DNA from: a virus
Virus record (IMG/VR): IMGVR_UViG_3300025630_000043
Location: 1-28,221 of that record
DNA length: 28,221 nt
Direction: 5' to 3' (one strand)
This document shows, one piece after another, positions 4-25,057 of this stretch. The notes beneath the pieces were generated by a model. The model made no database searches and was not told the DNA's origin. It worked only from the letters and a program-made list of their open reading frames with translations. The first letter of the stretch is position 1, and each line of letters starts with the position of its first letter. Position numbers and translations under genes: made by a program.

Positions 4-669
4 ATGGGACGATCAAAAATATTTACAGAGGATGCAATAAAAAAAATCTGCGCAGCGATCCGCTCAGGAGCGACCATCGAGATTGCGGCTAAATGCGGAG
101 GGATCTCTAAGTCGACTCTTTACACTTGGCTCGCTCAGGGAGAGAAGGACCGTAAACCGGATTATTTAAAATTTGCCAAAAGATTCAGAGAGGCAGAATG
201 TCAGGGAGCCCTCGATGCTCTGACGACAATACACTCCTCAATCACTCAGGGGGATGTCAAATCGGCTATGTGGCTCCTATCGAGACGACATGGATATAAA
301 CCGGATACGACACACGAGACGATAGAGATCAAATCCCAAAATAAAAACAGCAAACCTCTCGACTATAGGGAGATCCTCAGGACGCAGATTGACGAGCTCA
401 GGGAAAGCATGGCGAAAGCGAAGGACTCCGGATCATGGCAGGCATACGCAGCCTTACAGAGACAGATGGTCTCTCTCCTGTCAGAGCTCAGAGCACTAGA
501 CGCAGAGGAGGGAGCGATCGATCAATACGACAGCATGACAGATGATCAGGTCCTCTCTGAGATCGTGAATACGATTATCGCACTCCCTCCAATCCTGAGG
601 CAGAGAGTCGAGTCCGACCTGAGGAGCCTCGTCGGATCTAACATTGTGTCATTCAAATCCGGATCTTGA
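4..669 (+). CDS. terS: Terminase small subunit (putative)
   Basis: This 221-residue protein probably recognises phage DNA and hands it to the large terminase subunit for packaging. Residues about 19-44 form a helix-turn-helix (SGATIEIAAKCGG then ISKSTLYTWLAQG), typical of small terminases that bind pac or cos sites. It is followed by a basic, helical region (KFAKRFREAE, then LLSRRHGYKP near 91-100) and a long helical C-terminal half rich in Glu and Arg that could mediate oligomerisation. It is the first gene of the packaging block, and the large subunit lies about 1.8 kb downstream, which supports the assignment. Only the bases AGG precede the start in this window, so its ribosome site is not fully visible, and a slightly later start is possible. 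HTH proteins of this type are also annotated simply as phage DNA-binding proteins. Confidence 0.72.
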   Translation: MGRSKIFTEDAIKKICAAIRSGATIEIAAKCGGISKSTLYTWLAQGEKDRKPDYLKFAKRFREAECQGALDALTTIHSSITQGDVKSAMWLLSRRHGYKPDTTHETIEIKSQNKNSKPLDYREILRTQIDELRESMAKAKDSGSWQAYAALQRQMVSLLSELRALDAEEGAIDQYDSMTDDQVLSEIVNTIIALPPILRQRVESDLRSLVGSNIVSFKSGS

Positions 670-670
670 T

Positions 671-1843
671 ATGTGGGATGATTTGAGAGACTACAAAATA
701 TTAGAGGGAGACTGTATCGAGATGATGAGGACTCTCCCCTCTGACAGCATAGACGCAATCATCACAGATCCGCCCTATGGCTTAGGATTTATGAATAAAG
801 ATTGGGATGCCTCTGTCCCCGGTGTCGATTGGGCGAGGGAGTGTCTCAGGGTATTAAAGCCGGGTGGCCATCTCGTCGCTTTTGGTGGGACTCGGACTGT
901 GCATAGATTGACGTGTGCAATTGAGGATGGGGGATTTGAGATCCGAGATATGTTTAATTGGATCTACTTCTCAGGATTCCCAAAAAATCTCGACATCTCA
1001 AAACAATTCGACAGAGAGGCAGGTCTCCTCGGGATTGAAGGGGGATCTTATACAGATAAAAATAATCCGAGGTTTGTCATGACTCCTCCGACCGATCCTC
1101 GAGTCTATGTCCCTCCTGAGCCTCAGTCTGAGCTCGCTAAACGATATAGAGGATATGGGACTGCACTCAAACCCGCAATTGAGCCGGCTACACTCGCACG
1201 AAAGCCCCTCGAGAAAGGTCTCTCTGTCGCTCGTAATGTCGCAAAGTGGGGGACAGGAGCCATCAATATAGATGCGTGTCGTTTTGCTTTTGGTGATCCA
1301 TGTTGGGTAGGTCCTGACAATCGAAAAGCAGGATGGGGAGGAAGGCAGGGATTTAAATATACACATATGCAATGGGACAGAGAGGACATGTCACCAATGC
1401 ATCATAATAGAGGATATTGGCCTGCAAATATTTATCAATGCTCTAAGCCCTGCCGATCTGAGAGGGAGAGAGGACTCGAAGATCTCCCAAAAAAATCAGG
1501 AGCGGAGATCACAGGACGAGAGCCTGACTCCGCAGGATTAAAAAACGCAGCATCGGGAAAGGGGATCACGACTCCTATCGCAAATCACCATCCGACAGTA
1601 AAACCTCTTAAACTCATGAGATTTTTATGTCGATTGCTAGGGACGGAGAAGGGGAGTACTATTCTCGATCCCTTCTGTGGATCTGGGACGACAGGATGCG
1701 CAGCGATCCTCGAGGGATATGATTTTATCGGTATAGAGAGAGAGTCTCAGTATATCCCAATCATAGAGGGGAGACTGAGCTGGGCTCGTGAAGAGTATAA
1801 ACGAGAGAATGCTCAATTAGGACTTTTTGAGGAGGCTATATGA
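671..1843 (+). CDS. Amino-type DNA methyltransferase (N6-adenine or N4-cytosine), beta-class order
   Basis: The 390-residue product should transfer a methyl group from S-adenosylmethionine to an exocyclic amino group in DNA. The catalytic motif TDPPYGLGF lies near the N terminus (DPPY at residues 33-36) and the AdoMet-binding motif LDPFCGSGTT near the C terminus (from residue 333). This order is typical of beta-class enzymes such as those recognising GANTC or similar sites. HHPTVKPLKLMRFL just before motif I is also typical. A TTG at 644 would extend the frame into terS, but ATG 671, two bases after the terS stop, is the natural start. The gene sits between the two terminase genes, an uncommon place. 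Likely roles are protection from host restriction or marking of a packaging site. The target sequence cannot be read from the protein. Confidence 0.9.
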   Translation: MWDDLRDYKILEGDCIEMMRTLPSDSIDAIITDPPYGLGFMNKDWDASVPGVDWARECLRVLKPGGHLVAFGGTRTVHRLTCAIEDGGFEIRDMFNWIYFSGFPKNLDISKQFDREAGLLGIEGGSYTDKNNPRFVMTPPTDPRVYVPPEPQSELAKRYRGYGTALKPAIEPATLARKPLEKGLSVARNVAKWGTGAINIDACRFAFGDPCWVGPDNRKAGWGGRQGFKYTHMQWDREDMSPMHHNRGYWPANIYQCSKPCRSERERGLEDLPKKSGAEITGREPDSAGLKNAASGKGITTPIANHHPTVKPLKLMRFLCRLLGTEKGSTILDPFCGSGTTGCAAILEGYDFIGIERESQYIPIIEGRLSWAREEYKRENAQLGLFEEAI

Positions 1844-23592: not shown

Positions 23593-23933
23593 GGAGATCT
23601 TTTGATAAAAATATCCTTCCTCAGGAGCCTCCCCCCTCTCAGTCACGATCCCCAAAAAAGGAGAAGATCCCCGACCCCCTTCGATGTCCTGAGCTCGGGA
23701 TATTACTGACAAAATATAGGACTCAGGTCGGAGACAGATTCTCACTTCCTGAGCTGGCTCGGCTCTGCGGAGTAAAGCTCAATACTGCTAAAAAATGGTT
23801 TTATGGATATATCCCCTCTCATCTCGTCTATTGGATAATCGCTCGCTATTTTGAGAGACATCTCGACATAAAAGCAGACCTCATAAAAGAGGAGATCGAC
23901 ACCACAATCACAGCATGGAGGGAGAGCAAATGA
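23589..23933 (+). CDS. Small DNA-binding-like protein
   Basis: This 114-residue protein has a basic, Pro-rich N terminus (PQEPPPSQSRSPKKEKIPDP) followed by a helical domain. Residues about 52-76 (FSLPELARLCGVKLNTAKKWFYGY) look like a helix-turn-helix, and IPSHLVYWIIARYFERHL resembles a third helix. The C-terminal part is charged and helical. It overlaps the regulator before it and the methyltransferase after it by four bases each, so it is coexpressed with both. It may be a second regulator of the control region or a replication protein. The family is not recognised. Confidence 0.62.
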   Translation: MRRSFDKNILPQEPPPSQSRSPKKEKIPDPLRCPELGILLTKYRTQVGDRFSLPELARLCGVKLNTAKKWFYGYIPSHLVYWIIARYFERHLDIKADLIKEEIDTTITAWRESK

Positions 23934-25057
23934 TAAAAATCGGCTCCCTTTTTGCAGGGATAGGGGGATTTGAGCTCGGATTAGAGAGAGCCATCCCCAA
24001 TAGCGAGACCATCTGGCAGGTCGAACAAGATAAATTCTGTCAGAGGGTACTCCGGAAACATTGGCCACAATCAAAAATATATAACGACGTCAGGGAGGTC
24101 TCCTCTCATAATTTGGAGCCTGTCGATCTACTCTGCGGAGGATTCCCCTGTCAGGACATATCAATCGCAGGAAAAGGAGAGGGATTACATGGGAAAAAAT
24201 CGGGTCTTTGGTGGGAAATGCACAGAATTATCAGGGATATACGACCTCGAGTTATCGTGCTGGAAAACGTCTCAGCTGTCACTTTTCGAGGGGGATTATC
24301 AGTTATTGGATCGCTTACCGAACTCGGGTATAGCTGCGAATGGGGAATTATATCCGCTCGTCAATTCGGAGCCCCTCATCTCAGAAAGAGATGGTTCTGT
24401 GTTGCCTACTCCGAGGACATCTCAGGACTACAAAAAGATCAGGAGACTCTCTCCGAGCGAGAGGGATGGGCGACATGGTGCGACATTAGTCGGAGCCATC
24501 GGGGAGATGATGCTCCCCACTCCGACAGCGATGGGAGACATAAACAGCCCCGAGAGGACAGAGAGAGCGATCTCATTAGCAAAACAGAACAAGCCCCTCT
24601 ACACTCGAAGGATAGTAAACGGGAAAAAGATCCCAGACAAGCGCACATTTGGGATAAAGGATGCGATCCTTTACAATATGATGCTCCCCACTCCGACAGC
24701 AGAGGATGCCGCTCATACTCCGACAGCTCCGACAATCCAAAAATACAACGGAGGGAGATCTCTAAACGCATTTGTAGGGAGGATGCTCCCGACTCCGACG
24801 GTCGACACATCAAAAAACAATTTCTCGCCCAGCCAATTAAAGAGAGACAACAATCTTCCCAAAACAATATCGGATCTGTGTCAATCTCAGGGTTCGGCTA
24901 TTGGGAAAGATGCCCGGCTCCGTCCCCAATTTGTCGAGTGGATGATGGGATTCCCCATCGGGTGGCTAAACTTAGAGCTTTAGGGAATGCAATTGTCCCT
25001 CAATGCTCTGAGCATATAGGGAGATTGATACATGAGTCAGGAGTCCTCTATGGGTAA
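23930..25057 (+). CDS. C5-cytosine DNA methyltransferase
   Basis: This 375-residue enzyme should methylate carbon 5 of cytosine in DNA using AdoMet. The motifs are in the standard order: I FAGIGGFE (7-14), IV GGFPCQDIS (Cys74 as nucleophile), VI ENV (112-114), VIII QFGAPHLRKRWF (145-156), and X with LRALGNAIVP (348-357). Between VIII and X (about residues 160-330) the frame is unusual: hydrophilic, Ser/Asp/His/Arg-rich, with DAPHSDS or DAPDSDG three times, and without a clear target-recognition domain. This stretch also encodes a second frame (24189-24983). ATG 23930 is preferred to ATG 23915 because it overlaps the previous stop (ATGA) and follows GGAGGGAG. Target specificity is unknown. Confidence 0.9.
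   Translation: MIKIGSLFAGIGGFELGLERAIPNSETIWQVEQDKFCQRVLRKHWPQSKIYNDVREVSSHNLEPVDLLCGGFPCQDISIAGKGEGLHGKKSGLWWEMHRIIRDIRPRVIVLENVSAVTFRGGLSVIGSLTELGYSCEWGIISARQFGAPHLRKRWFCVAYSEDISGLQKDQETLSEREGWATWCDISRSHRGDDAPHSDSDGRHKQPREDRESDLISKTEQAPLHSKDSKREKDPRQAHIWDKGCDPLQYDAPHSDSRGCRSYSDSSDNPKIQRREISKRICREDAPDSDGRHIKKQFLAQPIKERQQSSQNNIGSVSISGFGYWERCPAPSPICRVDDGIPHRVAKLRALGNAIVPQCSEHIGRLIHESGVLYG
24189..24983 (+). CDS. Nested +1-frame ORF in C5-methyltransferase gene, LPTP-repeat protein (dual-coding candidate)
   Basis: This 264-residue ORF lies wholly inside the methyltransferase gene in the +1 frame. AAGGAGA (24174-24180) lies eight bases before its ATG. The product looks like a real protein: CWKTSQLSLFEGD (24-36), LPNSGIAANGELYPL (43-57), four LPTP units (72, 109, 166 and 200; MMLPTPTA twice or nearly so), and RPQFVEWMMGFPIGW (245-259). 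From memory, this set (WRTSQxSLFGD, PRSGMxRNGxxYxL, LPTPTAxD, EWLMGFPxGW) is a widespread phage and prophage protein family of unknown function, often annotated beside or over C5-methyltransferases. It ends one codon into methyltransferase motif X. Both frames carry conserved motifs. Expression is not shown, and an open frame by itself is weak evidence in this stop-poor genome. Confidence 0.62.
   Translation: MGKNRVFGGKCTELSGIYDLELSCWKTSQLSLFEGDYQLLDRLPNSGIAANGELYPLVNSEPLISERDGSVLPTPRTSQDYKKIRRLSPSERDGRHGATLVGAIGEMMLPTPTAMGDINSPERTERAISLAKQNKPLYTRRIVNGKKIPDKRTFGIKDAILYNMMLPTPTAEDAAHTPTAPTIQKYNGGRSLNAFVGRMLPTPTVDTSKNNFSPSQLKRDNNLPKTISDLCQSQGSAIGKDARLRPQFVEWMMGFPIGWLNLEL

What the first reader, a model, noticed from the sequence alone, without database searches (positions are those of the whole stretch)
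24189..24983. Dual-coding region: a 264-codon protein-like ORF nested in the +1 frame of the C5-methyltransferase
Both frames stay open across 795 bases, and each carries recognisable conserved motifs over the same DNA. The methyltransferase frame has motifs IV-VIII and X. The +1 frame has CWKTSQLSLFEGD, LPNSGIAANGELYPL, four LPTP units and FVEWMMGFPIGW. The +1 product also has its own AAGGAGA site eight bases upstream. Between methyltransferase motifs VIII and X the methyltransferase protein is hydrophilic and repetitive (DAPHSDS three times), while the +1 frame there looks more like a folded protein. I recall the +1 motifs as a widespread phage family of unknown function. If real, this would be an overprinted gene pair whose products are always made together; the nested protein could be a target-recognition or regulatory partner of the methyltransferase, a toxin or anti-restriction factor. 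Against it, this genome has few stop codons in other frames, and related database entries could be artefacts of the same overlap.
Basis: partly seen in the sequence, partly recalled or inferred. Interest (0 to 1): 0.85.

Follow-up and report, generated by a model that had tools for sequence, protein, structure and literature searches.

The report
Split DNA methyltransferase, two overlapping frames
A phage stores the two halves of one DNA-marking enzyme on the same stretch of DNA in two reading frames: the outer frame encodes the catalytic half and the nested frame most likely encodes the half that recognises the DNA target, an arrangement known from one bacterial enzyme and common, but mostly overlooked, in phages.

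Summary
The nested +1 ORF (24189-24983) is real and under selection. It is best read as the small (beta) subunit of a two-polypeptide C5-cytosine methyltransferase, the arrangement of M.EcoHK31I.

The outer frame (alpha, 23915-25057) carries motifs I-VIII and X. Between VIII and X its model is disordered. It lacks motif IX. Beta carries motif IX (FVEWMMGFPIGW) and the VIII-IX region, where canonical enzymes hold the target-recognition domain.

About 66 distinct viral sequences show the same dual coding. In the VIII-IX overlap, close pairs diverge as the beta frame predicts, not the alpha frame. Neither frame has stops, where synonymous recoding predicts dozens. In the VI-VIII overlap both frames are constrained. 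Beta's ATG is conserved more often than the alpha protein requires.

In actinobacterial genes the beta-type LPTP and motif IX segment lies in frame with motifs I-VIII, linking beta to the methyltransferase.

LPTP units are gained or lost whole between close relatives. This suggests exchangeable target-recognition cassettes, which was not tested biochemically.

The toxin and anti-restriction ideas have no support; beta is not a family of unknown function (PHROG 1008, 'DNA methyltransferase'). Expression and complex formation are inferred.

The parts
23915..25057 (+). alpha subunit: C5-cytosine methyltransferase frame, motifs I-VIII and X
   Evidence: PF00145 E 5.3e-48 over residues 8-226; the profile of alpha homologues matches M.HhaI only up to residue 204; model: residues 1-175 mean pLDDT 81-97, linker about 176-355 mostly 40-50, motif X helix 360-375 above 90; Foldseek match to M.HhaI over about 177 columns
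24189..24983 (+). beta subunit: nested +1 ORF, 264 aa; VIII-IX (recognition) region plus motif IX
   Evidence: PHROG 1008 E 1.4e-20; dual-frame conservation and constraint
24174..24180 (+). Shine-Dalgarno-like AAGGAGA inside alpha, eight bases before the beta ATG
   Evidence: ATG conserved in 19 of 19 near homologues (10.2 expected from alpha), ATG plus SD of 5 or more bases in 13 of 19 (4.5 expected)
24140..24154 (+). alpha motif IV GFPCQ with the catalytic cysteine; upstream of the overlap
   Evidence: translation; invariant
24255..24359 (+). beta N-terminal conserved block CWKTSQLSLF...LPNSGIAANGELYPL, dual-coded with alpha motifs VI-VIII
   Evidence: +1-frame identity across homologues z = 17 over alpha-preserving recoding, 0 stops against 84 expected
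24402..24917 (+). four LPTP units of beta (starts 24402, 24513, 24684, 24786); proposed recognition cassettes. Alpha reads the same DNA as a linker with DAPHSDS repeats
   Evidence: beta-frame substitution pattern; whole-unit gain or loss between close relatives; 23-bp direct repeat
24918..24965 (+). beta motif IX, LRPQFVEWMMGFPIGW
   Evidence: P, W, M, M, G invariant in 37 homologues; the same motif in L076 aligns to M.HhaI residues 270-307, the region of motifs IX-X (weak on its own), and L076 matches PF00145 end to end
24974..25003 (+). alpha motif X RALGNAIVPQ
   Evidence: GN and P invariant; helix with pLDDT above 90

Best explanation
The locus encodes a heterodimeric orphan C5-cytosine DNA methyltransferase of the M.EcoHK31I type. 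Shown by sequence and evolution: one ribosome path gives alpha, with the catalytic and SAM-binding large domain (motifs I-VIII), a disordered spacer and the motif X helix. The second frame, with its own internal start, gives beta, with the VIII-IX region and motif IX, the parts that make the small DNA-recognising domain in single-chain enzymes. Inferred: both are translated from one mRNA and associate into an active enzyme that methylates the phage genome at beta-specified sites to evade host restriction. Alpha's stretch between VIII and X is mostly a by-product that only has to stay open so that the ribosome reaches motif X.
For: About 66 distinct viral sequences have both frames open with motif IX in +1; in 99 of 121 classified locus records (redundant copies included) IX is in +1 and X in alpha. 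Divergence by codon position over 17 independent pairs: alpha-only N-terminus .070/.044/.190 (alpha frame); VIII-IX .118/.094/.251 in the beta frame, i.e. alpha position 1 fastest and position 3 slowest; after the beta stop .051/.018/.234 again alpha (Fisher 9e-32). In the VIII-IX overlap 0 alpha stops in 2042 codons, 78 expected. VI-VIII: +1 identity z = 17, 0 stops against 84; alpha-only control z = 0.2. Conserved ATG and SD. Alpha model lacks the small domain. L127, L136, L144: one polypeptide matches PF00145 and PHROG 1008. M.EcoHK31I's large subunit has I-VIII and X, its small subunit IX (PMC3404938). Phage Arcticfreeze is annotated with both nested genes.
Against: No expression or activity data. 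Beta modelled alone is poor (mean pLDDT 54.5), so the small-domain fold is not shown structurally. The beta profile finds no solved methyltransferase by sequence. For M.EcoHK31I the literature places the predicted TRD in the large subunit, whereas here the VIII-IX region is constrained in beta. GC-rich, more distant loci lack the conserved ATG position, and no near relative of the window itself was available for the substitution test.
Confidence: 0.87

Rival explanations
1. The beta frame is reached mainly by programmed +1 frameshifting from alpha, giving a fused I-VIII plus recognition region plus IX protein, rather than by internal initiation.
For: In L003, L004 and L005 alpha stops just after motif VIII and the LPTP, IX and X segments follow in +1; in some actinobacterial genes the LPTP run itself passes from +1 to frame 0.
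Against: Conserved internal ATG with SD; in L010, L014, L019, L083 and L102 a stop sits directly before the beta ATG; one shift would lose motif X, which stays in alpha in almost all loci.
Confidence: 0.07
2. Beta is made but is a separate regulatory, anti-restriction or toxic protein that only shares the DNA with the methyltransferase.
For: The N-terminal 50 residues have no named domain.
Against: It holds motif IX, missing from alpha, and in actinobacterial genes the LPTP-IX part is fused in frame with the catalytic domain. No beta was found without the methyltransferase frame over its N-terminus in the loci read.
Confidence: 0.04
3. The nested ORF is a composition artefact; related database entries are mis-called frames of the methyltransferase.
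For: The genome has few stops in some frames; part of the beta similarity follows automatically from alpha conservation.
Against: Recoding nulls and the reversal of the codon-position pattern within one gene.
Confidence: 0.01
4. An out-of-frame homing endonuclease insertion, as in the ShiLan domain of a mycobacteriophage methylase (PMC11855218).
For: Same theme: a hidden +1 ORF in a phage methylase gene.
Against: No HNH match; no insertion: the ORF overlaps the essential motifs VI-VIII and is present in all close relatives.
Confidence: 0.01

Closest known systems
M.EcoHK31I (YGGCCR), two-polypeptide C5 methyltransferase
   Same: Large subunit with motifs I-VIII and X, small subunit with motif IX (PMC3404938); from memory, the small subunit is read in another frame inside the large gene
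   Different: Literature puts the predicted TRD in the large subunit; here the VIII-IX region is constrained only in the nested frame.
M.AquI (CYCGRG), alpha and beta subunits
   Same: Split between motif VIII and motif IX on two polypeptides; Stasia gp76/gp75, Samy and Eesa look like this, with IX and X on the second protein
   Different: In the window motif X stays on alpha and beta is fully nested
PHROG 1008 'DNA methyltransferase'
   Same: The nested protein matches it, E 1.4e-20
   Different: The label does not say which part of the enzyme it is; Mycobacterium and Arthrobacter members continue into motif X
Paenibacillus phage Arcticfreeze genes 56 and 57
   Same: GenBank annotates a 705-bp gene wholly inside a 1056-bp methyltransferase gene, offset +1, both called DNA cytosine methyltransferase
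   Different: Diverged sequence, annotated without explanation
ShiLan domain, hidden HNH endonuclease in phage methylases
   Same: +1 ORF hidden in a phage methylase gene
   Different: An optional insertion encoding a nuclease; here it is a core part of the enzyme

Membership tests
C5-cytosine DNA methyltransferase (alpha) | Motifs I, IV (PCQ), VI (ENV), VIII (RxR), X (GNxxxP) in order | tested here: met
   PF00145 E 5.3e-48; invariant motif residues in 37 homologues; Foldseek match to M.HhaI
C5-cytosine DNA methyltransferase (alpha alone, single chain) | TRD and motif IX on the same chain | tested here: not met
   No motif IX in alpha by pattern search; alpha profile stops at M.HhaI residue 204; linker disordered and not constrained in the alpha frame
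M.EcoHK31I-type two-polypeptide methyltransferase | I-VIII and X on the large subunit, IX on a second polypeptide | tested here: met
   definition from PMC3404938
M.EcoHK31I-type two-polypeptide methyltransferase | Both polypeptides needed for activity | not testable with these tools
   needs expression
M.EcoHK31I-type two-polypeptide methyltransferase | Sequence homology of beta to M.EcoHK31I beta | not tested
   Sequence not found; the E. coli prophage genes found have the same dual coding but no restriction gene beside them in the stretches read
M.EcoHK31I-type two-polypeptide methyltransferase | Specificity YGGCCR | not testable with these tools
   no methylome data
PHROG 1008 | Profile match | tested here: met
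   E 1.4e-20; L014 2.3e-22
Hidden HNH homing element | HNH nuclease motif in the alternative frame | tested here: not met
   No Pfam or PHROG nuclease match to beta

The most novel reading that the evidence does not exclude
The LPTP units of the nested subunit are exchangeable target-recognition cassettes, so the phage can gain, lose or swap methylation specificities by moving whole units through the alternative frame of its own catalytic gene, with both frames kept open each time; a four-unit array such as this one may recognise several sites. Support: L083 and L084 (85-94% identical in shared parts) differ by one whole unit, as do L010 and L014; L007 and L017 match at 88-96% in the segments before the array and after the beta stop but carry different units; one unit type recurs at different positions in otherwise dissimilar loci (L013 and L066); a 23-bp repeat marks the unit starts here.
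Probability: 0.3. Interest if true: 0.75.

Novelty: new member of a known kind. Interest (0 to 1): 0.55.

Why it matters
It gives a long, well-supported and testable case of same-strand dual coding in which the two frames encode complementary parts of one enzyme. It explains why many phage and prophage C5 methyltransferases look as if they lack a recognition domain: it is in the other frame, and gene callers that keep only the longer ORF drop it. Anyone cloning such a gene by re-coding alpha alone would destroy beta and get an inactive enzyme. It also offers a natural system to study how two proteins evolve on one DNA sequence.

Tried and rejected
Beta-only AlphaFold model: too poor for a fold search. 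Beta profile against PDB sequences: only chance hits. Pfam and NCBIfam on beta: nothing. First start-codon test used loci already seen to have the ATG; replaced by an unbiased set, in which the signal holds for near homologues but not for the distant set. HNH homing element, toxin and anti-restriction readings: no support. Search for M.EcoHK31I itself in E. coli genomes found prophage relatives with the same dual coding but no restriction gene beside them in the stretches read. The original M.EcoHK31I and M.AquI papers are not held.

Full report
Observation. The window is a 28.2-kb IMG/VR virus record with terminase, tail, RusA and VapE-like genes. ORF 23915-25057 (alpha) is a C5-cytosine methyltransferase (PF00145, E 5.3e-48). 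ORF 24189-24983 (beta) lies inside it in the +1 frame, with AAGGAGA eight bases before its ATG. The nesting is not a chance product: alpha-preserving recoding leaves beta open in 0.03-0.04% of trials, and beta-preserving recoding leaves alpha open in none of 20,000.

Relatives. Searches with either protein brought in about 100 viral loci, in which the second ORF is almost always at +1 to the methyltransferase. Sixty-six distinct sequences have motif IX in that +1 ORF. Of 121 classified locus records, redundant copies included, 99 have motif IX in +1 and motif X in alpha; a smaller set, seen in actinobacterial genomes and a few viral contigs, has IX and X in frame 0 with LPTP units in +1; a few have IX and X both in +1 with alpha ending early. 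Hosts include Actinobacteria, Bacteroidota, Patescibacteria, Gemmatimonadota, Bdellovibrionales, Firmicutes, Leptospira, Acinetobacter and E. coli prophages. The pattern search needed FV[ET]WMMG, so this census is biased toward that motif. GenBank already annotates overlapping pairs in mycobacteriophages and a fully nested pair in Paenibacillus phage Arcticfreeze.

Selection. In 17 independent pairs, the alpha-only N-terminus evolves as an alpha gene (.070/.044/.190 by codon position). In the VI-VIII overlap alpha still dominates, but its third position is slowed (.131) and its first is raised (.093). Between VIII and IX the pattern is that of a beta gene (.118/.094/.251 in the beta frame; the alpha third position is the slowest). 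At IX both frames are held; after the beta stop the pattern returns to alpha (.051/.018/.234) (Fisher 9e-32 for VIII-IX against the N-terminus). Most of the 17 pairs come from one group of related prophages, so divergent pairs such as L016/L017, L032/L037, L019/L102 and L069/L072 matter most; they show the same VIII-IX pattern. For saturated pairs, +1-frame identity in VI-VIII is 0.252 against 0.191 under alpha-preserving recoding (z = 17) with 0 stops against 84, while the alpha-only control gives z = 0.2. The +2 frame also rises (z = 8.6), as expected when nucleotides are held, but keeps 64 stops. Alpha stays free of stops over 2042 beta codons where 78 are expected.

Translation of beta. 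In the 19 loci with alpha at least 46% identical to the window, an ATG sits at the same place in all 19 (10.2 expected from the alpha protein), and 13 have an SD match of five or more bases (4.5 expected). In several loci a stop codon directly precedes that ATG, which favours internal initiation over readthrough from upstream. More distant, GC-rich loci do not share the ATG position.

What each half is. The alpha model is confident for residues 1-175, disordered to about 355, then confident for the motif X helix; Foldseek aligns it to about 177 columns of M.HhaI. The alpha profile matches M.HhaI only to residue 204, so the small domain is missing. The FVEWMMGxPxGW motif is motif IX: in L076, where it lies in frame with I-VIII and X, the protein matches PF00145 end to end and phmmer aligns the segment with M.HhaI 270-307 (weak alone). 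In actinobacterial genes L127, L136 and L144 one polypeptide matches PF00145 and PHROG 1008 together. The beta model is poor, so its fold is inferred.

Comparison. M.EcoHK31I has motifs I-VIII and X on its large subunit and IX on the small one; M.AquI splits after VIII (PMC3404938). That M.EcoHK31I's small subunit is read in another frame is from my own knowledge. The window fits the M.EcoHK31I layout; direct homology was not tested. The published placement of the TRD in the large subunit differs from the constraint seen here. Function in the phage, protection from host restriction, is inferred from orphan phage methyltransferases in general; the target site is unknown.

Cassettes. LPTP units are gained or lost whole (L083/L084, L010/L014), and L007 carries different units from L017 while the segments before the array and after the beta stop match at 88-96%. 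One unit type is found at different positions in dissimilar loci, and the window has a 23-bp repeat at unit starts. This fits exchangeable recognition modules, but no specificity has been measured.

Noticed in passing
window 644-1840: A second DNA methyltransferase (N6_N4_Mtase, E 4.7e-31) whose match spans 340 residues for 220 profile positions, so it seems to carry an insertion of over 100 residues.
   Followed up: no
L127, L135, L136, L144, L121: Actinobacterial genes where the LPTP run passes from the +1 frame to frame 0 part-way, so that recognition-type units, IX and X are fused with the catalytic domain; suggests repeated shifts of the frame boundary in evolution.
   Followed up: partly
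L071, L076, L110, L143 and others: Motifs IX and X are in the catalytic frame while the LPTP units stay in +1: a third way of dividing the enzyme between frames.
   Followed up: partly
L161 3492-4253: E. coli prophage copy marked as a pseudogene in RefSeq; both the alpha and the +1 frame contain a stop at nearly the same place.
   Followed up: no
window 24507-24802: 23-bp direct repeat (two exact copies, one 83%) at the starts of LPTP units 2, 3 and 4, which could promote unit gain or loss by recombination.
   Followed up: no
L158 2225-3010, L161 and L162: In Leptospira and E. coli relatives the +1 frame is open from near the start of the methyltransferase gene, ahead of the usual beta start.
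   Followed up: no
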